DNA of 64,000 nucleotides from Tribonema minus. Taxonomy: Eukaryota > Sar > Xanthophyceae > Tribonematales > Tribonemataceae. A model generated the notes under the pieces. It saw only the letters and a program-made list of their open reading frames with translations, did not search any database and was not told the origin of the DNA. The DNA is taken from NCBI GenBank assembly GCA_017506865.1, contig JAFCMP010000006.1:489790-553789 (forward strand), written 5' to 3'. Within the stretch, counting starts at the first letter, position 1. Every line of letters begins with the position of its first letter. The translations under genes and the position numbers were made by a program. Of the stretch, positions 1 to 60,256 are shown piece by piece.

Positions 1-1
1 T

Positions 2-1846
2 CAACAACTGGAACGTGTAACAAGCAGCTACGCTGCTGACTCGTCGGATGCGACTTTGGCACCCACAGCGCAGCCTACTATGAAGCCCGACGCTCAGCTG
101 CAGCTGCAGCATGCAGCAGATCAGAGCTACTTCCATCAGGCTCTGATGACACTTACTATGCAGCGCGATGCAGCTACGGCAGAGGCTCAGCAGCTACGGA
201 GGGCCAACGCTGGCCTATCGGCGGCGCCAACGGCCGCAATGGCGGCCGCCCCAGGTACTATGCAAGCAGCGGCTACCCAGCAGAGGCCATCGACGACTGC
301 TGCGCCAACTGCCTTGCCTGCTGCCACCCTCGCGGACAGCGGCAGCAGCGACTTTGGCGCCGCAGCCCGCGGCGCCGGCAGCAGCGGCGGCGCCGGCAGC
401 AGCGGCGGCGCTGCAGGCAGCGGCGGCGCCGGAGGCGGCGGCGGCGGCGATGGCGGCGGCGGCGGCGGCGGAGGCGGCAGCGGCCCCTCTAGATCGCCCC
501 GGGGCAGTGTACCGGTTGGCGCAGCCTCTGGCGGCGGCAGCGGCGGCGGCAGTGGAGGCGGCGGTGGTGCAGGTGGCGCTGGTGGTGGCGGCAGTGGAGG
601 CAGCCGCGACGACAACTTTGATCGTGATGGCTGGGCTCTGCGCCGTGTACCGGCAGACTTGGACAAGCTGTTCCATGGCCTCACGCCTGTAAACCGCGGC
701 GACGAGTATGTCGTGTGGCAGATTGGCAGTCAACTGCTGGTGCACCTGCGCCACGCCTGCTCACTCGCGTGCCAGAAGGCCAAGCTGCCGCAGGTGCTCA
801 ACAGGGAGGACGACTTTGGTTGCGAATGGCTGGCCCCCTTCACCATGGGCCTGTGCGTCGCCTTACGGGGCTCGCACCCTGCAGCAGCAACGGTGCGCGA
901 GCAGGCAGAACAATGGATCGCGGAGGGCGCACGGGGGGTGGCGGCTGGCACGAGAGACCTGCAGCTCTACAAGTGGCTCATGGAACAACTGGGGGAGCAC
1001 TTCCAGCAAGGTCAGCCTTCTCGCATTGCGGCGGACCTGTTACGCGTGGCGGTGCGCAAAGACACGCCATTCCGTGATGCGCTCAACTACATGCAGTCCA
1101 AGTGCAACCTGTCCGCAATGATCGACCCGACAAACGACAACCTACGCGTCCAAGCTCTTACGGGCTTGGTGAACAGGCAATACCCAACGATTGCCGCGCA
1201 GGACAACATTCGGGACATCATCAACCGCCACACACGCTACAGCATGCACCAGGCGCTTGAGGCGCTCAAGGCGCACCGCTCCGTGCAGCATCTCGCCAGC
1301 GGCGCACCCGCCGGCTACTCTATATACCCGGAGACACTCAGCACGGGCTCAGGCGGAGGCGCCAGCGGTCTAAGTGGCGGCAGTGGTGGTGGTGGCACCA
1401 ATGATTACGCGCTGGGCGACAGGAGGCGCAGGCAGCAGCGTGAATAAGTAACACTGAACTCTATGGCTCTGTTGGCAGTGGTGGAGGAGAAATTCACCAG
1501 CTCGGAGCGGGCGCGGGGTAACGCGCTGGGGTGCTACAACTGCGGCGGTGATCACCTGTTCAGCGCATGCTCGGAGGCATTCAACCACGCAGGTTGGGCA
1601 GCGGCAGCAGTACAACGCCCACAGGTGCAGAAATTTGCGCCTACGAACCAGACGACGTGGCAGGCACTCCGGTCGCGCGTACGTGCTTTCAACAGCGGCG
1701 ATGCCTCCTCGCTTCAGGGCCCGCGCAGCAGAGATTCTGCAGATGGTGGAAGCGGAAGTGGCGCTGGCGGTGGCAGGAGCTACAACCGCTACGGGGGCGG
1801 CTACGGCTGCTGCGGCCGTGGCAACAGTGGCAACAGGGGCACCTAG
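2..1846 (+). pseudogene. Gag-like protein with zinc knuckle, interrupted by one nonsense codon
   Basis: The reading frame is open from the window edge. Its N-terminal coiled-coil part is seen only in the minus-strand copy. A Gly-, Ala- and Ser-rich low-complexity stretch lies at about 340-600. A globular Gag/capsid-like region follows at about 610-1320. A zinc knuckle CYNCGGDHLFSAC is near 1532-1570, with spacing CX2CX3HX4C, one residue shorter than the usual CX2CX4HX4C. The frame is broken at 1445-1447, where TAA replaces the TCA of the minus-strand copies. Downstream the same frame resumes and ends in TAG at 1844-1846. The C-terminus after the knuckle is Gly/Arg/Tyr-rich, typical of nucleic-acid-binding nucleocapsid tails. 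The Gag assignment rests on the knuckle, the position upstream of a retropepsin and the coiled coil; I recognise no specific family in the capsid part. Confidence 0.75.
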
Positions 1847-4800
1847 GGGTGCGACCCCCAGCCCACTCCTGCCTGGGGGGGAGCACTTGGAGCCTCTAGT
1901 GTCACTGGGGGGGGGGAGTGACGCCCTCCCCCCGACGACAGTCAGAGACGCTGCGGCAGCAGCGGCGCCTGCGGGCGTCGCGCAAGCTGCAGTGCGCGCG
2001 ACGTCTGCGGGGGCGACGGCGAGCGCCGCCCAAGCAGCTGACGCGCAGCTGAGCGCTGCGGTGGCAGCGGCGCCCTCGGGCGCCGCGCCAGTCGCAGCGC
2101 GTACTTCTGGTGTGGCGGCGCCGCGGCGCGCCGCGCACGCACCAGAGGCACTACGGAGTGCTGTGGCAGCAGCGGCGCCTACTGACGTCGCGCAAGCTGC
2201 AGCACGCGCGGCTTCTGCGGGGGTGCTGGTGAGCGCCGCCCAAACGGCCGACGCGCAACGAAGCGCTGCGATGGCAGCGGCGCCCTCGGGCACCGCGCCG
2301 GTCGCGGCGCGTGCTGCTGGTTTGGCGGTGCCTGCGCGCGCCGCGCACGCACCAACAGCACCACGGAGGGCTGCGGCAGCAGCGGTGTCTATGGACGTCG
2401 CGCAAGCTGCGGCGCGCGCAGCTTCTTCAGTGGCGCCGTCGAGCGCCGCCCAAGAGGATGACGCGCAGCGGGGCGTTGCGATGGCAGCAGCGCCCTCGGG
2501 CGCCGCGCCAGTCGCGGCGCGTGCTTCTGGTGTGGCGGCGCCGCGACGCGCCGCGCTCGCACCAGCAGCACCACGGAACGCTGCGGCAGCAGCGGCACCT
2601 TTGGGCGCTGCGCTGTCTGCAGTGCATGCAGCTTCTGCAGCAGCGGCGAGCGCCGCCCACGCAGCAGCTGCGCAGCAGAGCGTTACGACGGCGCAGCTTC
2701 CGTTGAGCGCTGCTGCTGAGGAGGCGCCCACGAACGCTGCTCAAGTCGCAACGGCGTGTTGGAGACCGGCGGCGTTGGCGGCGCCTGATGGTGCTGCACA
2801 GTCGCCGGCGACAACAACTACGTCTGTACAGCGGTGGCCTATTTTGGGGCGACGTAAGTCCAGCGGCGCGCGGCTACGGCGCGCGCGCGCGGAGCGCCTG
2901 CAGCAGGAGCAGCGCGCTCGACAGCCGGTAGCACCCCTCAGCCCTATTCAGGAGCGTGGTACTCCAGCACGGAGACCCGTGCATGCTGCGGCGGGTCATG
3001 GAGTTGGCGCGCACGCGTCATCGCAAGGGGGGGTGAGGATACCACCAGCACCAGCAGTGAGTAGGTGCAGCACGGCTACAACTCAGTCACTTAAAGTTAC
3101 TGCAACTTCTGTGCCGGCACATTTGGCGACTGCAGCAGCTGCTGCGACGCGACACACGACAACTCCATCTTCTACACCAACTTCAACTCTGACATCAACT
3201 GCGACTCCCACACATTCCTCAAGACCGCCTTCAGCACCACTCAGCGGCGGCGACGCTGCTGCGGCGGCGCACGCCGCCGACGACGCCGCCTTTGCAGCGG
3301 AGCAGCAGCGCAGGCTGATAGCTCTGCAGCGGCTTCATGCTTTCAAGGTGGATGGCACGGCTCAACCTGAGCCGCAGCGGCGGATGCGCAGCTGGGCGCC
3401 GGCGGCAGAGACCCTTGGCGCCATCGACGAGGTGCTGGACGGCGAGGCGGGCCTGACAGCGGTGGAGACAGCCATGGCAGAGGAGGCGCGCACTGTTGAG
3501 CGCTGCTTCGAGATACTGGCGATGTGGGCGCCGGAGGACGGAGCTGATGACGGGGCGGTCTTGGCATACTACGCTGAGGTGGCAGCGATGGAGGCCGCAG
3601 TACTACCTGTACCACAGCAGGCAAGCATGCCCAACGTAAGGGGCAAACTCTATACTGACGTGCACTCTAGGTTCAAGGCCCGTTTACGCTCTGCGCGCGC
3701 ACTACGTTGCAAGTTTTCTAGGGACATTCTCTGGGACACTGGGGCCTCAATTACTGCCATCAGGGAGCAAGCATTCCGCAAATTAGTTGCATCAGGAGCC
3801 ATAGAGCAACGGGATGTTCACCAACTCAGCAAACCTAGGGCAGTAGCCGGTGTTGACACATCCAAGAAGCCACAGCTCGTCACCCACGCTGTAGCGCTTC
3901 ACTTTGAGGCTGATGGCCCAGACGGGGTAGCTTTCACTCAGCTGGCGCTCATTGTACCACATCTGCCACACGACATCATCATTGGGCGTGACCACATCAG
4001 CAGACATAAGTGGCATGCAAGTCATAGTGGCAGTGGGCCCACATACGTGTATGGCGAGCCATCAGCAGAGTCCACCCCCAGCTTCAGTCCCAAAGTCCCA
4101 GTGTACACCTACGGAGAGGAACGCGATTGGGTGGCAGTAGTGCGCGTCGCAACAGAGCTAGATGGCCTTGAACATGGTGTGCAGACAGTTTGGGTTCAAG
4201 TGATGGAGTCTAATGGGATCACACCTGTCGTCTCCTGCCCGGGAGAACTGGACACAGCACATCTGACCATTGCGGAGGAATTCCTGAATCACATGTACAC
4301 ACGCGAGCTGACGGTTGGGCTGCATGCCAAGCCGGTCAAGCTCGAGCAGCGGGGGGGGGCCCTCTCGCTGCCACATGGCACCGTGCTGGGCAAGGCGCGG
4401 CCGCTACGTGAGGTACCTGACAGCGTGCTGGAACGGGACCCGAACGCGCGCGCCACGGCGGTAGAGGTTTACTGCGGCGCTGGCGGCCTGGCGGAGGGGC
4501 TCCAGCCCTACTTGAACGTCAAGCTAGCCGTTGACTCTGAGGAGCGCGCTCTTCGGATATACAAGGAGAATCACCCTCATACGGACGTCCGCCGCCGGGA
4601 TATGGCGGACCCATCTACGCGCGCAGAGCTCATTGCAGATATGTGGCGGCTGCGCGCCGAGGTCTTATTAGGGGGCCCCCCCTGCCAGAAATTCTCAACA
4701 GCAGGGGAGGGGAGACGGCTTTGGGCATGGAGCACCTCTACTACATGCTGGAGGTAGCAATGGGCGCAGAGACCTGCCGACTACTGCAGATTGAAAATGT

Positions 4801-5667
4801 TCCGGGCCTTGGGGCGGCACCGGAGCTGGCGGAGTTTCTGCGCTGCGCAGCACACGGCGGCTTCACGGTGCAGCAGGAGCTAGTGATCACTGGTGCAGAC
4901 AGCCGCATTGCTCAGACGCGCACGCATGTGTTTTGGCTGCTGGGGCGACCTGGCACTGGCGAGCACGACAGCGCGCGCATGCAGGCGTCTATGCACCAGG
5001 CAGTGCAGTTGCTGACATATGCCAAGCAGCACGCTGAGTACGACACCGTGCGCAACGTCACCAGCGACGTGCTTGACTCCAACGGTCAGCGGCGCGACTT
5101 CTTTGCAACAGTTGGCCGCAACACTAAGGCCAAACAGGTGCACTCTATGGACGGCCCGGCGCCGACCATTCGCGGCTGCACGTACCGCCGAAACCTGCAG
5201 CCTAACATCGACGTGCGACCACAGGATGCTACGCAGGACCCGGCTGAGCACGCGCGCGCGGAGTACCTACCCTGGCATGCGCTGCGCGCCATCACAGCTT
5301 TCCCACCTCGTACAAGTGGGATGCTCCAGAGCCGCCTGACGTCACTGCCTACTCACAGATGCTGGCAAACGCGGTGTGCCCGCAAATGGCGGACCTACTG
5401 GGGGGGATCCTGCTGCAGAGCGGATTGCTGCATGATGTTGTGGACCAGGCGGCGGCATCGTCGCTGCCAGATCCAGTACAAACCCTCATCAATTCTGGCA
5501 CCCACCACGCTTTCGGCAAGTATGGAGTGGCTCTTGCACAGGAGGCGCGCAGACGTGTGGCGCGCGGAGCGCGGGCGCCCCTCAAGCACAGGCTGCTGCA
5601 GCTGCGGCGGCGCCGGCGAGCGCTGCGACGGCGGCGCCGGCGAGCGCTGCTGCAGCAGCGCCGGTGA
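1847..5667 (+). pseudogene. Pol-like polyprotein: Ala-rich repeats, retropepsin, C5-cytosine DNA methyltransferase (frameshifted)
   Basis: After Gag the frame shifts by +1 relative to Gag because a G-run near 1907 has ten Gs. An Ala-rich repeat domain (1926-2720) and a linker rich in Ala, Thr, Ser and Glu (2720-3650) lead to an aspartic protease: active site WDTGAS at 3732-3749 and the conserved IIGRD at about 3979-3993. About 150 residues later comes a C5-methyltransferase. It shows motif I (VEVYCGAGGLAEGL, about 4461-4502), motif IV with catalytic Cys in GGPPCQKFSTAG (4671-4706), motif VI IENVPGL (4789-4809), motif VIII QTRTHVF (about 4912-4932) and motif X LANAVCPQMADLLGG (about 5361-5405). 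Two one-base frame breaks, one between motifs IV and VI near 4705-4725 and one between motif VIII and X near 5298-5325, split it over three frames. It therefore cannot make active enzyme from this copy without frame correction. A charged helical tail follows motif X. Confidence 0.85.
1926..2720 (+). repeat. Tandem Ala-rich coding repeats, period about 207-210 bp
   Basis: Segments beginning with a GAAPVAAR-type motif recur near 2085, 2290 and 2502, spacing about 207-210 bp (about 69-70 codons). Units diverge by point changes but keep the reading frame. The bias to GCN codons keeps several other frames open, which creates spurious long reading frames on both strands. The minus-strand copies carry a 6-bp in-frame insertion in one unit (near 8980-8990), so length varies between copies. 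Confidence 0.8.
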
Positions 5668-6470
5668 GCGCTGCTGCAGCGGCGCCGGCGAGCGCTGCTG
5701 CGGCGGCAGCATATACAGGCATTGCGCGCAGTGCGCCGCGGGCTGCTGCCGCGGCGCCGCAGGGTGCCGCGCAGTCAGCGGCCGCGCCGCGGAGCTCTGC
5801 GACAAAAGAGACGTCTTCTGGCCCCGTACACGGCGACACTGCTGCTGCTGCGCAGGCAGCGGCTGCACGCCGGGACGCTGCGGCGGCATCGGTGCCGGCT
5901 GGCACCGTGCGCGCTGCGGCCCAAGCTGCCTCAGGGGCGGCTCATAAGGATGTTGCGCAGGCAACAGTTGCGCGACGGAGCGCTGCGACGGCAGCGGCGC
6001 CCGAGGGCGCCGCGCCAGTCGCGGCGCGTGCTGCTGGTGTAGCGGCTGCGTCGGCGCGCGCCTCGCGCGCACCAGTGACACCAGGGCGTGCTGCAGCAGC
6101 AGCAGCGCCTGTGGGCGCCGCGCCAGCTGCAGCGCGCGCAGCCTCTTCGGTGGCGCCGACGAGCGCCGCCCAAGCGGCGGACGCGCAGCGGAGCGCTGCG
6201 GTGGCAGCGGCGCCTACGGGCGCCGCGCCTGTCGCGGCATACGCTGATTCTGCCGCGGCGCCGACCAGCGCCGCGCATGGAGTGGCAACACAACAGAGCA
6301 CTGCGGCAGCAGCGGCGCATGCTGGCGCTGAACCGGAACCAACTGATGAAACAACTAGTCTCCGTACTACACTTCAGCAAGTGCAGGGAACAATGCAGAG
6401 AAGACACCCACACACAACACAGCTGACCGAACTGTGCTATGTGTATTCTGGGGCTGCTGCTCTTGTCTGA
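5664..6470 (+). CDS. Second Ala-rich repeat domain closing the methyltransferase element
   Basis: An open frame of 268 codons starts in short 30-bp repeats (5600-5710). It continues through two Ala-rich units of the same family as 1926-2720 (near 6008 and 6217), then a non-repetitive Gln/Thr-rich tail, ending in TGA at 6468-6470. It is one frame away from the end of the methyltransferase reading frame, so it may be the C-terminal part of the same polyprotein after another break. It could also be the 5' piece of a separate protein joined by recombination. No catalytic motif is seen. Confidence 0.5.
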   Translation: MSAAAAAPASAAAAAAYTGIARSAPRAAAAAPQGAAQSAAAPRSSATKETSSGPVHGDTAAAAQAAAARRDAAAASVPAGTVRAAAQAASGAAHKDVAQATVARRSAATAAAPEGAAPVAARAAGVAAASARASRAPVTPGRAAAAAAPVGAAPAAARAASSVAPTSAAQAADAQRSAAVAAAPTGAAPVAAYADSAAAPTSAAHGVATQQSTAAAAAHAGAEPEPTDETTSLRTTLQQVQGTMQRRHPHTTQLTELCYVYSGAAALV

Positions 6471-6733
6471 GCCAAACAAACAACAACGAACAACTCGTAA
6501 CTGCCAACCGTAACAGTTACAGGTGACACCCCAACATCCAGTGTCACCACAGTCACCCCCCCTAGATTGGAAAGGGTACTGCAAGGGGGACCCACTACAC
6601 ATATGCAACATGACTCGCAAGCCAATGCTACACATTGCAATGACTCCTGTGCAAACGCAGTCAATATGCAAAGGCATGCCGCACAAGACGCCTCTCACAC
6701 GCCGGGGTCTCTACCAAGCACATGACCGTGTGA
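6471..6733. other. Convergent 3' region between the two element copies, with two adjacent hairpins
   Basis: No gene is seen here. Two perfect inverted repeats sit side by side. GTAACTG at 6497-6503 pairs with CAGTTAC at 6514-6520. GGTGACAC at 6522-6529 pairs with GTGTCACC at 6541-6548. A C-run (accccccctag) follows near 6556. The position between two convergent reading frames suggests transcript ends or element termini. The same structure recurs at 54793-54844 in the duplicate. Confidence 0.6.
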
Positions 6734-9217
6734 CTACACATGCAATGATTCCAGCTGGGCTTGTGTGCCAACTAGGAACCAAGAACCATTCGATGCATCT
6801 GGGCGCGTGTTGTACAAGCTAGGGTCCAGTACTAGGGTCTGATACACCCCTTCAACAATCCAGAACACCCTATGAGCTATCTGTGTATGCCTTGTCTTCC
6901 CCTTTGAGACTACGCCCGTGAGCTCGCCCTCACACCAAGTAAGGTGCTCTTCGCCGCTTGGCTCCGTGAACTTGAAAACAGCCATAAGCTGCAGTCCGCT
7001 GATAGCTGCACTCTGCAACACCAATGTCGCAGGTGGCTGGAGTAACGCCTCCGCCAGAGGCGCAAGCTCATACGAGCCCGCACCACATTGGGCCAGAACG
7101 CCGCCAACGCCCCGCGCCTTGACGGCGCGTCGCAGCTGACGCTTGACCACCTGAGTGTTTGAGCCCGCCACTGTAATGTCGCGACAGGCAATGGCCTTGT
7201 TTAATGTAGACCAGTACTCCTCGAGTACTTGGGGGCACTCATCTAGCTGCTCGGAGTCCTCCCACGAGTCAACTATCCCCCCACTGGTTGCACCCTCCCA
7301 GCGAATTAGGTACTGTAGGCGGTGCCCCCGCCCGCGCGCTGCCGCCGCTACACGATGTTGAAGTATTGCCTCTACACCGTGCCGCTGGAAGTTGTGAGCA
7401 GCAACGTCGTCAGTATAGAGTTTGCCCCTTACGTTGGGCATGCTTGCCTGCTGTGGTACAGGTAGTACTGCGGCCTCCATCGCTGCCACCTCAGCGTAGT
7501 ATGCCAAGACCGCCCCGTCATCAGCTCCGTCCTCCGGCGCCCACATCGCCAGTATCTCGAAGCAGCGCTCAACAGTGCGCGCCTCCTCTGCCATGGCTAT
7601 CTCCACCGCTGTCAGGCCCGCCTCGCCGTCCAGCACCTCATCGATGGCGCCAAGGGTCTCTGCCGCCGGCGCCCAGCTGCGCATCCGCCGCTGCGGCTCA
7701 GGTTGAGCCGTGCCATCCACCTTGAAAGCATGAAGCCGCTGCAGAGCTATCAGCCTGCGCTGCTGCTCCGCTGCAAAGGCGGCGTCGTCGGCGGCGTGCG
7801 CCGCCGCAGCAGCGTCGCCGCCGCTGAGTGGTGCTGAAGGCGGTCTTGAGGAATGTGTGGGAGTCGCAGTTGATGTCAGAGTTGAAGTTGGTGTAGAAGA
7901 TGGAGTTGTCGTGTGTCGCGTCGCAGCAGCTGCTGCAGTCGCCAAATATGGCGCCGTTGCCGGCGCAGAAGTTGCAGTTGTAGCCGTGCTGCAGCTACTC
8001 ACTGCTGGTGCTGGTGGTATCCTCACCCCCCCTTGCGATGACGCGTGCGCGCCAACTCCATGACCCGCCGCAGCATGCACGGGTCTCCGTGCTGGAGTAC
8101 CACGCTCCTGAATAGGGCTGAGGGGTGCTACCGGCTGTCGAGCGCGCTGCTCCTGCTGCAGGCGCTCCGCGCGCGCGCGCCGTAGCCGCGCGCCGCTGGA
8201 CTTACGTCGCCCCAAAATAGGCCACCGCTGTACAGTCGTAGTTGTTGTCGCCGGCGACTGTGCAGCACCATCAGGCGCCGCCAACGCCGCCGGTCTCCAA
8301 CACGCCGTTGCGACTTGAGCAGCGTTCGTGGGCGCCTCCTCAGCAGCAGCGCTCAACGGAAGCTGCGCCGTCGTAACGCTCTGCTGCGCAGCTGCTGCGT
8401 GGGCGGCGCTCGCCGCTGCTGCAGAAGCTGCATGCACTGCAGACAGCGCAGCGCCCAAAGGTGCCGCTGCTGCCGCAGCGTTCCGTGGTGCTGCTGGTGC
8501 GAGCGCGGCGCGTCGCGGCGCCGCCACACCAGAAGCACGCGCCGCGACTGGCGCGGCGCCCGAGGGCGCTGCTGCCATCGCAACGCCCCGCTGCGCGTCA
8601 TCCTCTTGGGCGGCGCTCGACGGCGCCACTGAAGAAGCTGCGCGCGCCGCAGCTTGCGCGACGTCCATAGACACCGCTGCTGCCGCAGCCCTCCGTGGTG
8701 CTGTTGGTGCGTGCGCGGCGCGCGCAGGCACCGCCAAACCAGCAGCACGCGCCGCGACCGGCGCGGTGCCCGAGGGCGCCGCTGCCATCGCAGCGCTTCG
8801 TTGCGCGTCGGCCGTTTGGGCGGCGCTCACCAGCACCCCCGCAGAAGCCGCGCGTGCTGCAGCTTGCGCGACGTCAGTAGGCGCCGCTGCTGCCACAGCA
8901 CTCCGTAGTGCCTCTGGTGCGTGCGCGGCGCGCCGCGGCGCCGCCACACCAGAAGTACGCGCTGCGACTGGCGCGGCGCCCGCCGGCGAGGGCGCCGCTG
9001 CCACCGCAGCGCTCCGCTGCGCGTCAGCTGCTTGGGCGGCGCTCGCTGTCGCCCCCGCAGACGTCGCGCGCACTGCAGCTTGCGCGACGCCCGCAGGCGC
9101 CGCTGCTGCCGCAGCGTCTCTGACTGTCGTCGGGGGGAGGGCGTCACTCCCCCCCCCAGTGACACTAGAGGCTCCAAGTGCTCCCCCCCAGGCAGGAGTG
9201 GGCTGGGGGTCGCACCC
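6734..9217 (-). CDS. Ala-rich repeats, linker, chromodomain and Tudor-like C-terminal domain
   Basis: The frame is open from the UAG that ends Gag (9218-9220) to the TGA-proximal end at 6734; the first ATG inside is at 9073. Three Ala-rich units and the acidic linker match the plus copy. From about 7408 a chromodomain begins: VEAILQHRV, then LQYLIRWEG, then DSWEDSEQL and LEEYW. This is the usual beta-strand, aromatic-cage and C-terminal helix layout. About 60 residues later a second module has the pattern of a Tudor/agenet-like fold (FKFTEPSGEEHLTWCEGEL, later a conserved-looking W near the end). Chromodomains bind methylated histone tails and in chromoviruses steer integration. With no integrase attached, the role here would be as a Gag fusion or none. 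The frame is uninterrupted, unlike its methyltransferase sister. Confidence 0.75.
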   Translation of the reverse strand, partial: GCDPQPTPAWGGALGASSVTGGGSDALPPTTVRDAAAAAAPAGVAQAAVRATSAGATASAAQAADAQRSAAVAAAPSPAGAAPVAARTSGVAAPRRAAHAPEALRSAVAAAAPTDVAQAAARAASAGVLVSAAQTADAQRSAAMAAAPSGTAPVAARAAGLAVPARAAHAPTAPRRAAAAAVSMDVAQAAARAASSVAPSSAAQEDDAQRGVAMAAAPSGAAPVAARASGVAAPRRAALAPAAPRNAAAAAAPLGAALSAVHAASAAAASAAHAAAAQQSVTTAQLPLSAAAEEAPTNAAQVATACWRPAALAAPDGAAQSPATTTTTVQRWPILGRRKSSGARLRRARAERLQQEQRARQPVAPLSPIQERGTPARRPVHAAAGHGVGAHASSQGGVRIPPAPAVSSCSTATTATSAPATAPYLATAAAAATRHTTTPSSTPTSTLTSTATPTHSSRPPSAPLSGGDAAAAAHAADDAAFAAEQQRRLIALQRLHAFKVDGTAQPEPQRRMRSWAPAAETLGAIDEVLDGEAGLTAVEIAMAEEARTVERCFEILAMWAPEDGADDGAVLAYYAEVAAMEAAVLPVPQQASMPNVRGKLYTDDVAAHNFQRHGVEAILQHRVAAAARGRGHRLQYLIRWEGATSGGIVDSWEDSEQLDECPQVLEEYWSTLNKAIACRDITVAGSNTQVVKRQLRRAVKARGVGGVLAQCGAGSYELAPLAEALLQPPATLVLQSAAISGLQLMAVFKFTEPSGEEHLTWCEGELTGVVSKGKTRHTQIAHRVFWIVEGVYQTLVLDPSLYNTRPDASNGSWFLVGTQAQLESLHV

Positions 9218-11067
9218 CTAGGTGCCCCTGTTGCCACTGTTGCCACGGCCGCAGCAGCCGTAGCCGCCCCCGTAGCGGTTGTAGCTCCTGCCACCGCCAG
9301 CGCCACTTCCGCTTCCACCATCTGCAGAATCTCTGCTGCGCGGGCCCTGAAGCGAGGAGGCATCGCCGCTGTTGAAAGCACGTACGCGCGACCGGAGTGC
9401 CTGCCACGTCGTCTGGTTCGTAGGCGCAAATTTCTGCACCTGTGGGCGTTGTACTGCTGCCGCTGCCCAACCTGCGTGGTTGAATGCCTCCGAGCATGCG
9501 CTGAACAGGTGATCACCGCCGCAGTTGTAGCACCCCAGCGCGTTACCCCGCGCCCGCTCCGAGCTGGTGAATTTCTCCTCCACCACTGCCAACAGAGCCA
9601 TAGAGTTCAGTGTCACTGATTCACGCTGCTGCCTGCGCCTCCTGTCGCCCAGCGCGTAATCATTGGTGCCACCACCACCACTGCCGCCACTTAGACCGCT
9701 GGCGCCTCCGCCTGAGCCCGTGCTGAGTGTCTCCGGGTATATAGAGTAGCCGGCGGGTGCGCCGCTGGCGAGATGCTGCACGGAGCGGTGCGCCTTGAGC
9801 GCCTCAAGCGCCTGGTGCATGCTGTAGCGTGTGTGGCGGTTGATGATGTCCCGAATGTTGTCCTGCGCGGCAGTCATTGGGTATTGCCTGTTCACCAAGC
9901 CCGTAAGAGCTTGGACGCGTAGGTTGTCGTTTGTCGGGTCGATCATTGCGGACAGGTTGCACTTGGACTGCATGTAGTTGAGCGCATCATGGAATGGCGT
10001 GTCTTTGCGCACCGCCACGCGTAACAGGTCCGCCGCAATGCGAGAAGGCTGACCTTGCTGGAAGTGCTCCCCCAGTTGTTCCATGAGCCACTCGTAGAGC
10101 TGCAGGTCTCTCGTGCCAGCCGCCACCCCCCGTGCGCCCTCCGCGATCCATTGTTCTGCCTGCTCGCGCACCGTTGCTGCTGCAGGGTGCGAGCCCCGTA
10201 AGGCGACGCACAGGCCCATGGTGAAGGGGGCCAGCCATTCGCAACCAAAGTCGTCCTCCCTGTTGAGCACCTGCGGCAGCTTGGCCTTCTGGCGCGCGAG
10301 TGAGCAGGCGTGGCGCAGGTGCACCAGCAGTTGACTGCCAATCTGCCACACGACATACTCGTCGCCGCGGTTTACAGGCGTGAGGCCATGGAACAGCTTG
10401 TCCAAGTCTGCCGGTACACGGCACAGAGCCCAGCCATCACGATCAAAGTTGTCGTCGCGGCTGCCTCCACTGCCGCCACCACCAGCGCCACCTGCACCAC
10501 CGCCGCCTCCACTGCCGCCGCCGCTGCCGCCGCCAGAGGCTGCGCCAACCGGGTACACTGCCCCGGGGCGATCTAGAGGGGCCGCTGCCGCCTCCGCCGC
10601 CGCCGCCGCCGCCATCGCCGCCACCGCCGCCTCCGGCGCCGCCGCTGCCTGCAGCGCCGCCGCTGCTGCCGGCGCCGCCGCTGCTGCCGGCGCCGCAAGC
10701 GCGGCGCCAAAGTCGCTGCTGCCGCTGTCCGCGAGGGTGGCAGCAGGCAAGGCAGTTGGCGCAGCAGTCGTCGATGGCCTCTGCTGGGTAGCCGCTGCTT
10801 GCATAGTACCTGGGGCGGCCGCCATTGCGGCCGTTGGCGCCGCCGATAGGCCAGCCTTGGCCCTCCGTAGCTGCTGAGCCTCTGCCGTAGCTGCATCGCG
10901 CTGCATAGTAAGTGTCATCAGAGCCTGATGGAAGCAGCTCTGATCTGCTGCATGCTGCAGCTGCAGCTGAGCGTCGGGCTTCATAGTAGGTTGCGCTGTG
11001 GGTGCCAAAGTCGCATCCGACGAGTCAGCAGCGTAGCTGCTTGTTACACGTTTCCAGTTGTTGACGC
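7408..11067 (-). repeat. Right arm of the 3.66-kb inverted repeat
   Basis: This is the reverse complement of 1-3660. The spacer of about 3.7 kb holds the diverging 3' parts of the two element copies. Confidence 0.85.
9218..11055 (-). CDS. Gag-like protein with zinc knuckle, uninterrupted in this copy
   Basis: This is the same Gag and zinc knuckle as at 2-1846, but with serine TCA where the plus copy has a stop, so the frame runs unbroken to UAG at 9218-9220. The open frame technically extends to an ATG at 11170. Upstream of about 11053 that extension is out of frame with the coiled-coil N-terminus, because of one extra A (ctggaaacg here, ctggaacg in the plus copy). The ancestral Gag therefore probably started at 11960, and the single-base insertion now separates N-terminus and body. 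The zinc knuckle lies near 9500-9535 on this strand. Confidence 0.72.
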
Positions 11068-11960
11068 AGTGGCCGGGCGTCAGCGCCGCCAGCAGGAATG
11101 GTCGGCGCCGCCGATCCGCTCGGCGACACGTGCTTTCCAGGCCCAGCCAATGGTGCAGCGTATGGCGCAATAGGCGGTCGTGCCACGCTGCTGCTGCGGA
11201 TCGTACTAAGCGGCACTGCCGGGCCGCTGGTGCTGAAGTCTGCTACTGACACGCTGTCCTCGGGAGCCACACTGGGTGCTGCGCTGCCAAAGTTGTTACC
11301 CACAGAGTGGAAGGATGTCTCATACGCCGTTGTGGTACGACGCTGCGCATCAAGCATCGCACCTTTAGTGCCCACCTCAAGTAGCTGGCGCCGCATGTCC
11401 CCCACGCCCTCTGCAGCGTTGTTGTGCCGCCGCAGCAGATCCTCTTGCCGCGCGATCACCTCGGAGTCCTCCATGCGCTTTTGCCCCTGCGCAACCTCCG
11501 CTGCCACTCCTGACAGGCGCTCACCCATGTGGATCAGCCGCAACTCCGCAGTCGCAATCCTCTCACCGACCTCCGCGATGCTCCCCGCGATGGCCGCCAT
11601 GTCTCCTTGTATGACAGGAATCACATCCTGTACCAGCGCGTCCATGTCGCGCTGTGATGCTGCACCGCCTGCGATGGTGGGGCCACTCCCCATCTGCGCC
11701 AGTGCACTAGCGTGCTCCGCCAGCTGCATCTGGTGCCTGCGCAGCGATGTGTCGATACCGGGCAAGTTGTGCGTAATTACCATGCACAGATCCTGCCCCA
11801 TGAGAGAGGTGGTGTTGGCCACCCCTGCGAGCCCCCCTTTGAGGCTGGTTACCTCGGACTGCAGGAACTGCAACTCCATGTTGAGCTGCAAGTCCAAGTC
11901 CTCCTCGGCAGTCATATGCCCCACCGTCGCAGCTTCCTTTCGCTGCTCCTCCTGCTCCAT
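11025..11960 (-). CDS. N-terminal coiled-coil part of Gag
   Basis: This frame of 311 codons starts MEQEEQRKEAATVGHM. Long helical stretches rich in Glu, Gln, Leu and Arg (roughly residues 10-190) have heptad-like spacing, and a Ser/Ala/Pro-rich linker follows. It ends prematurely at TGA 11025-11027, just after the extra A near 11053. In the plus copy, which lacks that A, the same frame continues into the Gag body at the window edge. I read it as the Gag N-terminal oligomerisation region. I recognise no named family. The ATG is about 25 bp from the edge of repeat R1. Confidence 0.7.
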   Translation of the reverse strand: MEQEEQRKEAATVGHMTAEEDLDLQLNMELQFLQSEVTSLKGGLAGVANTTSLMGQDLCMVITHNLPGIDTSLRRHQMQLAEHASALAQMGSGPTIAGGAASQRDMDALVQDVIPVIQGDMAAIAGSIAEVGERIATAELRLIHMGERLSGVAAEVAQGQKRMEDSEVIARQEDLLRRHNNAAEGVGDMRRQLLEVGTKGAMLDAQRRTTTAYETSFHSVGNNFGSAAPSVAPEDSVSVADFSTSGPAVPLSTIRSSSVARPPIAPYAAPLAGPGKHVSPSGSAAPTIPAGGADARPLRQQLETCNKQLRC

Positions 11961-12000
11961 TTCACGCTCCCTAGGGGGGGGCGGGAGTACCCTTCACATT

Positions 12001-50645: not shown

Positions 50646-50809
50646 CTGTGGGGGAAGGGGGGCGGGGGAGTCAATGTGAGTGGGGGGGGGGGGGGTCAAG
50701 GGTTCACAGGCGCAGGGAGTGATCACAATGGGTGCGCCGCATGACGCGTGATTACTGATGAGTGGTCGGGGCAGGGAGTTGAGGTCGGAGGGGGGGCCAC
50801 GACAGCAGT
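50646..50809. other. Remnant between the ankyrin gene and the duplication border
   Basis: G-rich sequence (runs at about 50681-50695 and 50790-50797), with no exon seen. Upstream exons of the ankyrin gene would be expected from here on, but the duplicated retroelement sequence starts at 50810. Confidence 0.5.
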
Positions 50810-50812
50810 GCG

Positions 50813-53800
50813 GCGCGTGCTTCTGGTGTGGCGGCGCCGCGACGCGCCGCGCTCGCACCAGCAGCACCACGGAACGCTGCGGCAGCAGCGGCACCTTTGG
50901 GCGCTGCGCTGTCTGCAGTGCATGCAGCTTCTGCAGCAGCGGCGAGCGCCGCCCACGCAGCAGCTGCGCAGCAGAGCGTTACGACGGCGCAGCTTCCGTT
51001 GAGCGCTGCTGCTGAGGAGGCGCCCACGAACGCTGCTCAAGTCGCAACGGCGTGTTGGAGACCGGCGGCGTTGGCGGCGCCTGATGGTGCTGCACAGTCG
51101 CCGGCGACAACAACTACGACTGTACAGCGGTGGCCTATTTTGGGGCGACGTAAGTCCAGCGGCGCGCGGCTACGGCGCGCGCGCGCGGAGCGCCTGCAGC
51201 AGGAGCAGCGCGCTCGACAGCCGGTAGCACCCCTCAGCCCTATTCAGGAGCGTGGTACTCCAGCACGGAGACCCGTGCATGCTGCGGCGGGTCATGGAGT
51301 TGGCGCGCACGCGTCATCGCAAGGGGGGGTGAGGATACCACCAGCACCAGCAGTGAGTAGGTGCAGCACGGCTACAACTCAGTCACTTAAAGTTACTGCA
51401 ACTTCTGTGCCGGCACATTTGGCGACTGCAGCAGCTGCTGCGACGCGACACACGACAACTCCATCTTCTACACCAACTTCAACTCTGACATCAACTGCGA
51501 CTCCCACACATTCCTCAAGACCGCCTTCAGCACCACTCAGCGGCGGCGACGCTGCTGCGGCGGCGCACGCCGCCGACGACGCCGCCTTTGCAGCGGAGCA
51601 GCAGCGCAGGCTGATAGCTCTGCAGCGGCTTCATGCTTTCAAGGTGGATGGCACGGCTCAACCTGAGCCGCAGCGGCGGATGCGCAGCTGGGCGCCGGCG
51701 GCAGAGACCCTTGGCGCCATCGACGAGGTGCTGGACGGCGAGGCGGGCCTGACAGCGGTGGAGACAGCCATGGCAGAGGAGGCGCGCACTGTTGAGCGCT
51801 GCTTCGAGATACTGGCGATGTGGGCGCCGGAGGACGGAGCTGATGACGGGGCGGTCTTGGCATACTACGCTGAGGTGGCAGCGATGGAGGCCGCAGTACT
51901 ACCTGTACCACAGCAGGCAAGCATGCCCAACGTAAGGGGCAAACTCTATACTGACGTGCACTCTAGGTTCAAGGCCCGTTTACGCTCTGCGCGCGCACTA
52001 CGTTGCAAGTTTTCTAGGGACATTCTCTGGGACACTGGGGCCTCAATTACTGCCATCAGGGAGCAAGCATTCCGCAAATTAGTTGCATCAGGAGCCATAG
52101 AGCAACGGGATGTTCACCAACTCAGCAAACCTAGGGCAGTAGCCGGTGTTGACACATCCAAGAAGCCACAGCTCGTCACCCACGCTGTAGCGCTTCACTT
52201 TGAGGCTGATGGCCCAGACGGGGTAGCTTTCACTCAGCTGGCGCTCATTGTACCACATCTGCCACACGACATCATCATTGGGCGTGACCACATCAGCAGA
52301 CATAAGTGGCATGCAAGTCATAGTGGCAGTGGGCCCACATACGTGTATGGCGAGCCATCAGCAGAGTCCACCCCCAGCTTCAGTCCCAAAGTCCCAGTGT
52401 ACACCTACGGAGAGGAACGCGATTGGGTGGCAGTAGTGCGCGTCGCAACAGAGCTAGATGGCCTTGAACATGGTGTGCAGACAGTTTGGGTTCAAGTGAT
52501 GGAGTCTAATGGGATCACACCTGTCGTCTCCTGCCCGGGAGAACTGGACACAGCACATCTGACCATTGCGGAGGAATTCCTGAATCACATGTACACACGC
52601 GAGCTGACGGTTGGGCTGCATGCCAAGCCGGTCAAGCTCGAGCAGCGGGGGGGGGCCCTCTCGCTGCCACATGGCACCGTGCTGGGCAAGGCGCGGCCGC
52701 TACGTGAGGTACCTGACAGCGTGCTGGAACGGGACCCGAACGCGCGCGCCACGGCGGTAGAGGTTTACTGCGGCGCTGGCGGCCTGGCGGAGGGGCTCCA
52801 GCCCTACTTGAACGTCAAGCTAGCCGTTGACTCTGAGGAGCGCGCTCTTCGGATATACAAGGAGAATCACCCTCATACGGACGTCCGCCGCCGGGATATG
52901 GCGGACCCATCTACGCGCGCAGAGCTCATTGCAGATATGTGGCGGCTGCGCGCCGAGGTCTTATTAGGGGGCCCCCCCTGCCAGAAATTCTCAACAGCAG
53001 GGGAGGGGAGACGGCTTTGGGCATGGAGCACCTCTACTACATGCTGGAGGTAGCAATGGGCGCAGAGACCTGCCGACTACTGCAGATTGAAAATGTTCCG
53101 GGCCTTGGGGCGGCACCGGAGCTGGCGGAGTTTCTGCGCTGCGCAGCACACGGCGGCTTCACGGTGCAGCAGGAGCTAGTGATCACTGGTGCAGACAGCC
53201 GCATTGCTCAGACGCGCACGCATGTGTTTTGGCTGCTGGGGCGACCTGGCACTGGCGAGCACGACAGCGCGCGCATGCAGGCGTCTATGCACCAGGCAGT
53301 GCAGTTGCTGACATATGCCAAGCAGCACGCTGAGTACGACACCGTGCGCAACGTCACCAGCGACGTGCTTGACTCCAACGGTCAGCGGCGCGACTTCTTT
53401 GCAACAGTTGGCCGCAACACTAAGGCCAAACAGGTGCACTCTATGGACGGCCCGGCGCCGACCATTCGCGGCTGCACGTACCGCCGAAACCTGCAGCCTA
53501 ACATCGACGTGCGACCACAGGATGCTACGCAGGACCCGGCTGAGCACGCGCGCGCGGAGTACCTACCCTGGCATGCGCTGCGCGCCATCACAGCTTTCCC
53601 ACCTCGTACAAGTGGGATGCTCCAGAGCCGCCTGACGTCACTGCCTACTCACAGATGCTGGCAAACGCGGTGTGCCCGCAAATGGCGGACCTACTGGGGG
53701 GGATCCTGCTGCAGAGCGGATTGCTGCATGATGTTGTGGACCAGGCGGCGGCATCGTCGCTGCCAGATCCAGTACAAACCCTCATCAATTCTGGCACCCA

Positions 53801-53963
53801 CCACGCTTTCGGCAAGTATGGAGTGGCTCTTGCACAGGAGGCGCGCAGACGTGTGGCGCGCGGAGCGCGGGCGCCCCTCAAGCACAGGCTGCTGCAGCTG
53901 CGGCGGCGCCGGCGAGCGCTGCGACGGCGGCGCCGGCGAGCGCTGCTGCAGCAGCGCCGGTGA
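50813..53963 (+). pseudogene. Second copy of the retropepsin-methyltransferase reading frame, 5'-truncated
   Basis: It starts within the last Ala-rich unit and lacks Gag. The retropepsin active site is at about 52031 and the methyltransferase motifs I to X run from about 52757 to 53701. Both frame breaks of the first copy are present at the same places (near 53001-53021 and 53594-53621), so they predate the duplication or come with a common source. Confidence 0.85.
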
Positions 53964-54766
53964 GCGCTGCTGCAGCGGCGCCGGCGAGCGCTGCTGCGGC
54001 GGCAGCATATACAGGCATTGCGCGCAGTGCGCCGCGGGCTGCTGCCGCGGCGCCGCAGGGTGCCGCGCAGTCAGCGGCCGCGCCGCGGAGCTCTGCGACA
54101 AAAGAGACGTCTTCTGGCCCCGTACACGGCGACACTGCTGCTGCTGCGCAGGCAGCGGCTGCACGCCGGGACGCTGCGGCGGCATCGGTGCCGGCTGGCA
54201 CCGTGCGCGCTGCGGCCCAAGCTGCCTCAGGGGCGGCTCATAAGGATGTTGCGCAGGCAACAGTTGCGCGACGGAGCGCTGCGACGGCAGCGGCGCCCGA
54301 GGGCGCCGCGCCAGTCGCGGCGCGTGCTGCTGGTGTAGCGGCTGCGTCGGCGCGCGCCTCGCGCGCACCAGTGACACCAGGGCGTGCTGCAGCAGCAGCA
54401 GCGCCTGTGGGCGCCGCGCCAGCTGCAGCGCGCGCAGCCTCTTCGGTGGCGCCGACGAGCGCCGCCCAAGCGGCGGACGCGCAGCGGAGCGCTGCGGTGG
54501 CAGCGGCGCCTACGGGCGCCGCGCCTGTCGCGGCATACGCTGATTCTGCCGCGGCGCCGACCAGCGCCGCGCATGGAGTGGCAACACAACAGAGCACTGC
54601 GGCAGCAGCGGCGCATGCTGGCGCTGAACCGGAACCAACTGATGAAACAACTAGTCTCCGTACTACACTTCAGCAAGTGCAGGGAACAATGCAGAGAAGA
54701 CACCCACACACAACACAGCTGACCGAACTGTGCTATGTGTATTCTGGGGCTGCTGCTCTTGTCTGA
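53960..54766 (+). CDS. Second copy of the terminal Ala-rich domain
   Basis: I see no difference from 5664-6470. It ends in TGA at 54764-54766, followed by the twin hairpins at 54793-54844. Confidence 0.5.
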   Translation: MSAAAAAPASAAAAAAYTGIARSAPRAAAAAPQGAAQSAAAPRSSATKETSSGPVHGDTAAAAQAAAARRDAAAASVPAGTVRAAAQAASGAAHKDVAQATVARRSAATAAAPEGAAPVAARAAGVAAASARASRAPVTPGRAAAAAAPVGAAPAAARAASSVAPTSAAQAADAQRSAAVAAAPTGAAPVAAYADSAAAPTSAAHGVATQQSTAAAAAHAGAEPEPTDETTSLRTTLQQVQGTMQRRHPHTTQLTELCYVYSGAAALV

Positions 54767-55029
54767 GCCAAACAAACAACAACGAACAACTCGTAACTGC
54801 CAACCGTAACAGTTACAGGTGACACCCCAACATCCAGTGTCACCACAGTCACCCCCCCTAGATTGGAAAGGGTACTGCAAGGGGGACCCACTACACATAT
54901 GCAACATGACTCGCAAGCCAATGCTACACATTGCAATGACTCCTGTGCAAACGCAGTCAATATGCAAAGGCATGCCGCACAAGACGCCTCTCACACGCCG
55001 GGGTCTCTACCAAGCACATGACCGTGTGA

Positions 55030-57513: not shown

Positions 57514-59351
57514 CTAGGTGCCCCTGTTGCCACTGTTGCCACGGCCGCAGCAGCCGTAGCCGCCCCCGTAGCGGTTGTAGCTCCTGCCACTGCCAGCGCC
57601 ACTTCCGCTTCCACCATCTGCAGAATCTCTGCTGCGCGGGCCCTGAAGCGAGGAGGCATCGCCGCTGTTGAAAGCACGTACGCGCGACCGGAGTGCCTGC
57701 CACGTCGTCTGGTTCGTAGGCGCAAATTTCTGCACCTGTGGGCGTTGTACTGCTGCCGCTGCCCAACCTGCGTGGTTGAATGCCTCCGAGCATGCGCTGA
57801 ACAGGTGATCACCGCCGCAGTTGTAGCACCCCAGCGCGTTACCCCGCGCCCGCTCCGAGCTGGTGAATTTCTCCTCCACCACTGCCAACAGAGCCATAGA
57901 GTTCAGTGTCACTGATTCACGCTGCTGCCTGCGCCTCCTGTCGCCCAGCGCGTAATCATTGGTGCCACCACCACCACTGCCGCCACTTAGACCGCTGGCG
58001 CCTCCGCCTGAGCCCGTGCTGAGTGTCTCCGGGTATATAGAGTAGCCGGCGGGTGCGCCGCTGGCGAGATGCTGCACGGAGCGGTGCGCCTTGAGCGCCT
58101 CAAGCGCCTGGTGCATGCTGTAGCGTGTGTGGCGGTTGATGATGTCCCGAATGTTGTCCTGCGCGGCAGTCATTGGGTATTGCCTGTTCACCAAGCCCGT
58201 AAGAGCTTGGACGCGTAGGTTGTCGTTTGTCGGGTCGATCATTGCGGACAGGTTGCACTTGGACTGCATGTAGTTGAGCGCATCATGGAATGGCGTGTCT
58301 TTGCGCACCGCCACGCGTAACAGGTCCGCCGCAATGCGAGAAGGCTGACCTTGCTGGAAGTGCTCCCCCAGTTGTTCCATGAGCCACTCGTAGAGCTGCA
58401 GGTCTCTCGTGCCAGCCGCCACCCCCCGTGCGCCCTCCGCGATCCATTGTTCTGCCTGCTCGCGCACCGTTGCTGCTGCAGGGTGCGAGCCCCGTAAGGC
58501 GACGCACAGGCCCATGGTGAAGGGGGCCAGCCATTCGCAACCAAAGTCGTCCTCCCTGTTGAGCACCTGCGGCAGCTTGGCCTTCTGGCGCGCGAGTGAG
58601 CAGGCGTGGCGCAGGTGCACCAGCAGTTGACTGCCAATCTGCCACACGACATACTCGTCGCCGCGGTTTACAGGCGTGAGGCCATGGAACAGCTTGTCCA
58701 AGTCTGCCGGTACACGGCACAGAGCCCAGCCATCACGATCAAAGTTGTCGTCGCGGCTGCCTCCACTGCCGCCACCACCAGCGCCACCTGCACCACCGCC
58801 GCCTCCACTGCCGCCGCCGCTGCCGCCGCCAGAGGCTGCGCCAACCGGGTACACTGCCCCGGGGCGATCTAGAGGGGCCGCTGCCGCCTCCGCCGCCGCC
58901 GCCGCCGCCATCGCCGCCACCGCCGCCTCCGGCGCCGCCGCTGCCTGCAGCGCCGCCGCTGCTGCCGGCGCCGCCGCTGCTGCCGGCGCCGCAAGCGCGG
59001 CGCCAAAGTCGCTGCTGCCGCTGTCCGCGAGGGTGGCAGCAGGCAAGGCAGTTGGCGCAGCAGTCGTCGATGGCCTCTGCTGGGTAGCCGCTGCTTGCAT
59101 AGTACCTGGGGCGGCCGCCATTGCGGCCGTTGGCGCCGCCGATAGGCCAGCCTTGGCCCTCCGTAGCTGCTGAGCCTCTGCCGTAGCTGCATCGCGCTGC
59201 ATAGTAAGTGTCATCAGAGCCTGATGGAAGCAGCTCTGATCTGCTGCATGCTGCAGCTGCAGCTGAGCGTCGGGCTTCATAGTAGGTTGCGCTGTGGGTG
59301 CCAAAGTCGCATCCGACGAGTCAGCAGCGTAGCTGCTTGTTACACGTTTCC
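57514..59351 (-). CDS. Second copy of Gag with zinc knuckle
   Basis: It is uninterrupted like 9218-11055. One base change near 57587 turns a Gly codon to Ser in the Gly-rich tail. It has the same extra A near 59349 separating it from the coiled-coil N-terminus. Confidence 0.72.
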
Positions 59352-60256
59352 AGTTGTTGACGCAGTGGCCGGGCGTCAGCGCCGCCAGCAGGAATGGTCG
59401 GCGCCGCCGATCCGCTCGGCGACACGTGCTTTCCAGGCCCAGCCAATGGTGCAGCGTATGGCGCAATAGGCGGTCGTGCCACGCTGCTGCTGCGGATCGT
59501 ACTAAGCGGCACTGCCGGGCCGCTGGTGCTGAAGTCTGCTACTGACACGCTGTCCTCGGGAGCCACACTGGGTGCTGCGCTGCCAAAGTTGTTACCCACA
59601 GAGTGGAAGGATGTCTCATACGCCGTTGTGGTACGACGCTGCGCATCAAGCATCGCACCTTTAGTGCCCACCTCAAGTAGCTGGCGCCGCATGTCCCCCA
59701 CGCCCTCTGCAGCGTTGTTGTGCCGCCGCAGCAGATCCTCTTGCCGCGCGATCACCTCGGAGTCCTCCATGCGCTTTTGCCCCTGCGCAACCTCCGCTGC
59801 CACTCCTGACAGGCGCTCACCCATGTGGATCAGCCGCAACTCCGCAGTCGCAATCCTCTCACCGACCTCCGCGATGCTCCCCGCGATGGCCGCCATGTCT
59901 CCTTGTATGACAGGAATCACATCCTGTACCAGCGCGTCCATGTCGCGCTGTGATGCTGCACCGCCTGCGATGGTGGGGCCACTCCCCATCTGCGCCAGTG
60001 CACTAGCGTGCTCCGCCAGCTGCATCTGGTGCCTGCGCAGCGATGTGTCGATACCGGGCAAGTTGTGCGTAATTACCATGCACAGATCCTGCCCCATGAG
60101 AGAGGTGGTGTTGGCCACCCCTGCGAGCCCCCCTTTGAGGCTGGTTACCTCGGACTGCAGGAACTGCAACTCCATGTTGAGCTGCAAGTCCAAGTCCTCC
60201 TCGGCAGTCATATGCCCCACCGTCGCAGCTTCCTTTCGCTGCTCCTCCTGCTCCAT
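59321..60256 (-). CDS. Second copy of the Gag N-terminal coiled-coil frame
   Basis: Same as 11025-11960, ending early at TGA because of the shared one-base insertion. Confidence 0.7.
   Translation of the reverse strand: MEQEEQRKEAATVGHMTAEEDLDLQLNMELQFLQSEVTSLKGGLAGVANTTSLMGQDLCMVITHNLPGIDTSLRRHQMQLAEHASALAQMGSGPTIAGGAASQRDMDALVQDVIPVIQGDMAAIAGSIAEVGERIATAELRLIHMGERLSGVAAEVAQGQKRMEDSEVIARQEDLLRRHNNAAEGVGDMRRQLLEVGTKGAMLDAQRRTTTAYETSFHSVGNNFGSAAPSVAPEDSVSVADFSTSGPAVPLSTIRSSSVARPPIAPYAAPLAGPGKHVSPSGSAAPTIPAGGADARPLRQQLETCNKQLRC

What the first reader, a model, noticed from the sequence alone, without database searches (positions are those of the whole stretch)
3660..5410. A DNA cytosine methyltransferase inside a Gag-retropepsin polyprotein
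Seen: one reading direction carries zinc-knuckle Gag, a DTGAS retropepsin and, 150 residues on, a C5-methyltransferase with motifs I, IV (PCQ), VI (ENV), VIII and X. Known: a few algal and dinoflagellate retrotransposons have captured such enzymes, thought to methylate their own copies. Inferred: this is another, possibly new, lineage. Placing the methyltransferase directly after the protease, with no reverse transcriptase between, is an unusual layout.
Basis: partly seen in the sequence, partly recalled or inferred. Interest (0 to 1): 0.88.

Follow-up and report, generated by a model that had tools for sequence, protein, structure and literature searches.

The report
Jumping gene carrying DNA methylation enzyme
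The stretch is a broken copy of a virus-like jumping gene of an alga that carries its own DNA-marking enzyme between its protease and its copying enzyme; such elements are known from a few algae, but this enzyme type and this layout look new.

Summary
Window 3660-5442 carries a DTGAS protease and then a C5-cytosine methyltransferase (MT), inside a copy of an LTR retrotransposon. The copy is dead: early stop in Gag, frame changes, the MT spread over three frames, everything after 6334 missing. It is no assembly join: the region recurs in 41 rows at 97-100% identity. An undamaged relative on contig C340 shows the whole: 211-bp LTRs, Gag, in-frame UAG, then a 2,936-residue Pol in the order protease-MT-RT-RNase H-integrase-chromodomain, a Ty3/Gypsy type. 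So RT was not replaced; it follows the MT and is lost here. The same photosynthetic host holds more Gypsy families with MTs: some ordered like the window's, some with the MT before the protease, and two (G, H) with divergent MTs. Retrotransposon-borne DNMTs are published (PMC5890265: Symbiodinium, Klebsormidium). What differs: this MT is not Dnmt3-like by sequence search, seems to form a lineage apart from DNMT1, DNMT2 and the bacterial-type enzymes compared, and sits in two places. dN/dS near 0.2 between families argues that it works. Likeliest role: methylating the element's own cDNA. That is inferred; I found no clear CpG-decay footprint. New variant of a known kind.

The parts
1..6334 (+). 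Element 1: decayed copy of Gypsy family A, cut at 6334; its 5' part lies before the window and was not read
   Evidence: 97.5% identical to the C340 element over window 1-6163, 98.8% over 6164-6334
2..1846 (+). Gag (partial), with an early in-frame TAA at 1445-1447
   Evidence: ORF list; the Gag frame of L021 is open through this place
1532..1570 (+). Zinc-knuckle-like CX2CX3HX4C of Gag
   Evidence: regular expression on the C340 Gag; same peptide in the window frame; no Pfam match
1844..1846 (+). UAG between Gag and Pol
   Evidence: 42 of 43 genomic matches to the exact flanking pattern have TAG, one has TCG
1950..2697 (+). Ala-rich repeats before the protease
   Evidence: repeats about 82% alike
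3660..4031 (+). Retropepsin-like protease, DTGAS at 3735-3749
   Evidence: motifs and a weak hhalign match to proteases of families B, C, D
4443..5442 (+). C5-cytosine methyltransferase, broken into three frames
   Evidence: PF00145, motifs, rows
5962..6318 (+). Ala-rich repeats after the MT, related to those before the protease
   Evidence: 79-80% identity to the repeats before the protease of C340, same orientation
6335..11982 (-). Element 2: inverted copy of the same family; similarity to C340 ends at 11982 without the 5' LTR; 6.3-kb internal deletion at 7408 joins the Gag side to the chromodomain
6344..6555 (-). LTR of element 2
   Evidence: 99% identical to C340 LTRs
7208..7375 (-). Chromodomain at the C-terminal end of Pol (element 2)
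   Evidence: PF00385 E 2.4e-7
50806..64000 (+). Second copy of 2509-15706, same broken MT included
   Evidence: 99.94% identity; second place

Best explanation
The window holds a dead fragment of a Ty3/Gypsy LTR retrotransposon family whose Pol carries a C5-cytosine methyltransferase between protease and reverse transcriptase. In intact copies Pol is probably made by reading through a UAG after Gag, and the MT travels with RT and integrase in the particle (both inferred). The likeliest role is methylation of cytosines in the element's own newly made cDNA before or at integration, so that the new copy enters the genome already marked and avoids recognition or decay as foreign DNA (inferred). 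Shown: the gene order, the copy number, an almost complete MT domain in the intact relative, the conserved UAG, and between-family constraint on the MT. Not shown: catalysis, target base, substrate.
For: Order and domains: PF00145 at Pol residues 867-1179, RVT_1, RNase H, integrase and chromodomain after it in one open frame (scanned as two pieces). LTRs at both ends, 99% identical. Six A-family frames of 2,936 residues. MT intact in 11 of 15 A-family places whose letters I held; two of the four broken ones are the window copies. dN/dS of MT 0.24 (A against A2), 0.20 (C against D), 0.19 (two B copies), 0.32 (two C copies, four differences). Motifs I, IV, VI, VIII and X kept in A, A2 and E although A and E MTs are only 37% identical. 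UAG in 42 of 43 junctions. Published precedent: a DIRS-borne DNMT methylated CG de novo in yeast (PMC5890265, sections seen); in the same test the Klebsormidium Gypsy enzyme and the LINE enzyme gave no methylation, which the authors call inconclusive.
Against: No clear footprint of CG methylation: CpG observed/expected is 0.93 in A Pol, 0.82-0.87 in B, C and D, 0.94 in window 15707-50805 and 1.20 in the host cobW gene; transitions at CpG exceed others only about 1.4-fold in 11 pairwise comparisons that share inherited differences (73 of 10,483 CpG bases against 105 of 21,266 others; my sums). Among young A copies dN/dS is 0.27-0.65 between the two groups, and 0.65-2.94 or undefined within a group. 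Families D, G and H have altered motifs (SSC and TRC for PPC, ENA for ENV). The nearest solved sequences include the tRNA enzyme DNMT2. RNA structure after the UAG is not better than shuffles (z -1.23).
Confidence: 0.55

Rival explanations
1. The MT methylates RNA: the element's genomic RNA or its tRNA primer.
For: Best sequence match of the clade I profile among solved structures is DNMT2, the tRNA C38 enzyme (46 bits), just above DNMT1 (44 bits); DNMT2 also leads for clade II. The authors of PMC5890265 raise RNA methylation for the LINE-borne enzymes.
Against: For clade I the margin over DNMT1 is 2 bits; in the N-half tree DNMT2 does not group with the retro MTs (branch 92/90, not starred).
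Confidence: 0.15
2. The MT acts in trans on host or competing DNA, for instance against DNA viruses or to reshape host chromatin.
For: Hypothesis in print (PMC6338049, passages seen). 122 and 128 MT rows in one genome, fragments counted apart, and virus-like stretches elsewhere in the same genome (L025-L027).
Against: No sequence result here links the MT to such targets.
Confidence: 0.12
3. The MT is kept as a DNA- or RNA-binding module and need not be catalytic.
For: Motif IV altered in D and G, motif VI in H.
Against: A, A2, E, B, C and F keep PC in motif IV and ENV in motif VI. The catalytic Cys is present in 8 of 8 families whose motif IV I read (those six, D and G); H's was not fetched. 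Low dN/dS in between-family comparisons.
Confidence: 0.15
4. Host DNMT gene beside a retroelement, or an assembly join at 3660-4440.
For: Similarity between the two elements in the window stops at 3660, and the 13.2-kb duplication could be an assembly effect.
Against: The stop at 3660 is a 6.3-kb deletion in element 2. The region recurs in 41 rows, and the MT is inside single open Pol frames.
Confidence: 0.02

Closest known systems
KnitGypsy-Dnmt3 of Klebsormidium nitens (PMC5890265)
   Same: Gypsy-type Pol with a C5-MT in the Pol frame, intronless, multi-copy, purifying selection on the MT
   Different: Its MT is Dnmt3-type, while none of the 49 solved sequences matched by ours up to E 10 is named DNMT3. 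Its repeats are arranged as in DIRS elements, while family A on C340 has plain 211-bp LTRs.
SymbioDIRS-Dnmt3 and SymbioLINE-Dnmt of Symbiodinium (PMC5890265)
   Same: Retrotransposon-borne C5-MTs in large copy number; the LINE-borne ones are also an orphan MT lineage; two SymbioDIRS structures differ in domain order
   Different: DIRS and LINE elements, not LTR Gypsy with integrase and chromodomain. Relation of the MTs could not be tested: no sequences at hand.
Chromodomain-bearing Gypsy elements (chromoviruses; brown-algal kin in PMC12477816)
   Same: Chromodomain after the integrase
   Different: No C5-MT is described for them in the passages that I saw.
DIRS elements with Dam-type adenine methylases (named in PMC5890265)
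   Same: Retroelement with a methylase
   Different: Adenine enzyme, which that paper calls structurally unrelated to cytosine DNMTs; different element class

Membership tests
Ty3/Gypsy LTR retrotransposon | Pol order RT-RNase H-integrase in one frame | tested here: met
   L022 2-4528, on the intact relative; the integrase core scores 31.3 bits, just under its cut-off of 32.6
Ty3/Gypsy LTR retrotransposon | Direct LTRs TG...CA | tested here: met
   211 bp, TGTGGTG...TTTCATCA, 99% alike, on C340
Ty3/Gypsy LTR retrotransposon | Target-site duplication and tRNA primer site | tested here: inconclusive
   No matching 5-bp flanks at C340 by eye; a stretch with TGG follows the 5' LTR but no tRNA was identified
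Retrotransposon-borne C5-MT (PMC5890265 kind) | MT inside the Pol frame of a multi-copy element | tested here: met
Retrotransposon-borne C5-MT (PMC5890265 kind) | Purifying selection on the MT (that paper: Ka/Ks under 0.2 for the Klebsormidium copies) | tested here: met
   dN/dS 0.19-0.24 between families or diverged copies, 0.27-0.65 and above among young copies
Retrotransposon-borne C5-MT (PMC5890265 kind) | Methylates DNA | not testable with these tools
   needs an assay; in that paper shown for the DIRS enzymes only
KnitGypsy-Dnmt3 / SymbioDIRS-Dnmt3 | MT of the Dnmt3 family | tested here: not met
   No entry named DNMT3 among 49 PDB sequences up to E 10 for clade I or 26 up to E 1 for clade II, though DNMT1, DNMT2 and bacterial enzymes appear; by sequence only, no Dnmt3 row in the trees
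SymbioLINE-Dnmt orphan lineage | Shared MT ancestry | not tested
   no sequences available
Chromovirus | C-terminal chromodomain | tested here: met
   PF00385
Chromovirus | RT groups with chromoviruses | not tested
   no reference RTs at hand

The most novel reading that the evidence does not exclude
The MT is a core enzyme of a whole Gypsy assemblage: captured once, from an orphan MT lineage that is not Dnmt3 and does not group with DNMT1 or DNMT2, deep in the ancestry of families whose RTs now differ by about 70%, and kept since, while protease and MT changed places in one branch. Both families that I picked by RT alone (G and H, 2 of 2) also carry an MT, and with G in the tree all 13 rows (clades I and II, G, and metagenome proteins P0070 and P0072) stay on one side against 19 bacterial-type rows (97/99).
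Probability: 0.35. Interest if true: 0.78.

Novelty: new variant of a known kind. Interest (0 to 1): 0.62.

Why it matters
Why a parasite would carry the enzyme that hosts use to silence it is an open question. One genome with several Gypsy families, many long open frames, two MT placements and divergent MT variants allows that question to be tested by comparison and by assay. It would also widen retrotransposon-borne C5-MTs beyond Dnmt3 and the published hosts.

Tried and rejected
Tried and rejected. (1) A Gag-protease-MT element without RT as a family of its own: rejected, the window copy is truncated at 6334 and the intact relative has RT. (2) MT-less sister families G and H as proof of two captures: I held this view, whose lists are capped; small pieces showed an MT in both, so it is withdrawn. 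(3) One or two captures: unresolved. Clades I and II fall on one side of a branch (100/99) with P0070 and P0072 in the 81-row tree, but P0073, one of the 11 rows that I had labelled clade II, falls among the bacterial-type rows. In the N-half tree clades I plus II alone are not rejected as one clade (AU p 0.268). With G added, the 13 rows hold together (97/99) but their inner order is open, and clade I plus G is not rejected (p 0.128). Rows left out: P0002, P0060, P0069 and P0071; searches used 20 and 19 of the P0003-P0073 rows called bac. The label bac is mine; their organisms were not checked. (4) Host DNMT1 by its RFD domain: no hit, but the control rang nowhere; BAH gave four rows that could not be read. 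(5) Relatives in viral contigs: none for P0001 and P0072; two loci with bacterial-looking MTs for the clade II alignment. (6) Full Pol query in the protein collection: none of 3,763 candidates at E 0.001. (7) RNA fold after the UAG: no better than shuffles. (8) Structure prediction was not run: the tool's list of admitted sequences does not name loci taken from whole genomes. (9) Alignment A3 had wrong coordinates for two rows and was not used; the check was redone. (10) L004, a PF00145 row, showed no MT motif in my scans and was left out.

Full report
What is in the window. The + strand from base 1 to 6334 is a fragment of an LTR retrotransposon (element 1; what lies before the window was not read). 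It carries Gag (early TAA at 1445-1447), a UAG at 1844-1846, a retropepsin-like domain at 3660-4031 with DTGAS at 3735-3749, and a C5-cytosine methyltransferase (MT) at 4443-5442. The MT motifs lie in three reading frames: I and IV in one, VI and VIII in a second, X in a third; a genome search with an intact MT returns the window copy as three rows, one with a TGA inside. The frame of Pol also differs from that of Gag after the UAG. The copy cannot make the protein. From 6335 to 11982 lies an inverted copy of the same family (element 2); its 6.3-kb deletion joins the Gag side directly to the chromodomain at 7408, which is why similarity between the two elements stops at 3660. Bases 2509-15706 are repeated at 50806-64000 with 99.94% identity.

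The intact relative. A search with 3640-5520 gave 41 rows at 97-100% identity, the window's two places included (40 of 79 candidates scored, one copy split in two rows, so a lower bound). I used contig C340 (L021, L022, L041). There the LTRs are 211 bp, TG...CA, 99% alike. Gag (2433-5717) is followed by UAG and, in the same frame, by a Pol frame of 2,936 residues. Pfam finds PF00145 (E 1.1e-18, profile 3-316 of 324), RVT_1, RNase H, integrase zinc-binding and core, and a chromodomain, in that order (the integrase core is just under its curated cut-off). The protease precedes the MT; it is not seen by Pfam and aligns to the proteases of families B, C and D with E 0.0065 but a probability of only 5.8%. 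Six A-family frames of 2,936 residues are listed. The pattern around the UAG has TAG in 42 of 43 exact matches and TCG in one, which fits readthrough; the predicted RNA fold behind it is not better than shuffles (z -1.23).

The wider set in the same genome. The genome has 158 Mb in 554 contigs; 92 rows of the light-harvesting family point to a photosynthetic host, otherwise unnamed. Clade I has the window's order: family A, A2 (RT mostly 83%, MT 63-65% identical to A) and E (RT mostly 61-66%, MT 35-37%), with the MT start about 2.1-2.8 kb before the RT match in the places where I compared the two lists; the protease itself was read only in A. The clade I MT search gave 122 rows (118 of 396 candidates scored; fragments of one copy count apart). 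Clade II (B, C, D) has the MT before the protease (protease by Pfam in B, by motif and alignment in C and D); its Pols are 43-62% alike among themselves and about 29% like A in the RT region. The clade II MT search gave 128 rows (126 of 382 candidates scored). A metagenome protein, P0066, has a clade II MT followed, by eye, by the start of a protease region like that of C and D. Two more families, G and H, were picked by RT alone (37-38% like A). A 1.2-kb piece of G holds an MT with a Pfam match (E 4.4e-9) and motif IV changed to TRC. A 0.5-kb piece of H holds ENAP and downstream motifs shared with G, but no Pfam match. Two of two is a small sample, and A-D were found by their MTs in the first place.

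What the MT is. The clade I profile matches, among solved structures, DNMT2 (46 bits), DNMT1 (44), the cytosine-specific methyltransferase 3g7u (41) and HaeIII (38); none of the 49 matches up to E 10 is named DNMT3. Clade II gives DNMT2 and HhaI first, and no DNMT3 among 26 matches up to E 1. NCBIfam sees the general dcm superfamily, below its cut-off, in all seven MTs tested. In a tree of 81 rows, clades I and II with P0070 and P0072 lie on one side of a branch (100/99); on the other are 62 rows of bacterial type, two phage-contig MTs, two virus-like MTs of the host genome, and P0073, which the clade II search had found. In a 35-row N-half tree with DNMT1 and DNMT2 the ten retro and P0070/P0072 rows hold together at 92/90, below the star. 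With G added, 13 rows hold together against 19 bacterial-type rows (97/99), their inner order open. So the MT seems to be of an orphan lineage as far as tested; DNMT3, DNMT5, DNMT6 and CMT were not in the trees. The nearest proteins elsewhere are the metagenome fragments P0001 (68% identical over 68% of the query; nearest to A2 in the tree) and P0002 (42%).

Does it work? Of 15 A-family places with letters, 11 have an intact MT frame. dN/dS is 0.24 (A-A2, dS 1.2), 0.20 (C-D, dS 1.7, near saturation), 0.19 (two B copies) and 0.32 (two C copies, only four differences); for A against E dS is saturated. Among young A copies it is 0.27-0.65 between two groups, and 0.65-2.94 or undefined within them, on very few changes. 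CpG content gives no clear sign of methylation decay: 0.93 in A Pol, 0.82-0.87 in B, C and D, 0.94 in window 15707-50805, 1.20 in the host cobW gene. The sequence therefore supports a maintained enzyme but not a particular target.

Comparison with print. De Mendoza and others (PMC5890265; abstract, passages and three parts of the text) describe Dnmt3-type MTs in DIRS elements and orphan MTs in LINEs of Symbiodinium, and a Dnmt3-type MT in a Gypsy Pol of Klebsormidium; in yeast the DIRS enzymes methylated CG de novo, the other two did not. An opinion paper (PMC6338049, passages) says that methylase-encoding Ty3/Gypsy and DIRS elements occur in green algae among others, without detail in what I saw. 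A survey (PMC9998398, passages) found no DNMT3 in the green algae of its transcriptome set. My searches of the held library (listings; passages of six further papers) showed no paper on a non-Dnmt3 MT between protease and RT of a Gypsy element; many journals are not held, so this is no proof of novelty.

Verdict. A real, recurrent Gypsy-borne C5-MT; the window copy is a dead fragment. New variant of a known kind: a different MT lineage, a different place, several families in one host.

Noticed in passing
window 2509-15706 and 50806-64000: 13.2-kb duplication at 99.94% identity, 48 kb apart, with element sequence and flanks; true segmental duplication or assembly effect not decided.
   Followed up: no
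window 6335-6343: Element 2's LTR is followed by nine bases like those after the 5' LTR of C340, and then joins element 1 head-on, as might come from self-integration or recombination.
   Followed up: partly
window 1950-2697 and 5962-6318: Related Ala-rich direct repeats bracket the protease-MT module, a possible route for moving the module.
   Followed up: partly
L001-L003, L025-L027 (contigs C223, C181): Free-standing C5-MTs in virus-like stretches (ResIII helicase, DNMK kinase, DUF4379 zinc fingers): possible endogenous giant-virus DNA.
   Followed up: partly
L028, L036, L038 protease regions: Clade II proteases have DCG or DNG where A has DTG at the active site.
   Followed up: no
window 36790-39180: Host CobW-type GTPase gene pieces (PF02492, PF07683).
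   Followed up: partly
window 44735-45925 (-): Ankyrin and TRAF-type zinc-finger gene piece.
   Followed up: no
C340 (L021/L022): Two family A copies in tandem orientation about 0.8 kb apart; no matching 5-bp target duplication seen for the first.
   Followed up: partly
P0070, P0072: Metagenome MTs near the base of clade II with a similar extra C-terminal region by eye, perhaps free-standing kin of the donor.
   Followed up: partly
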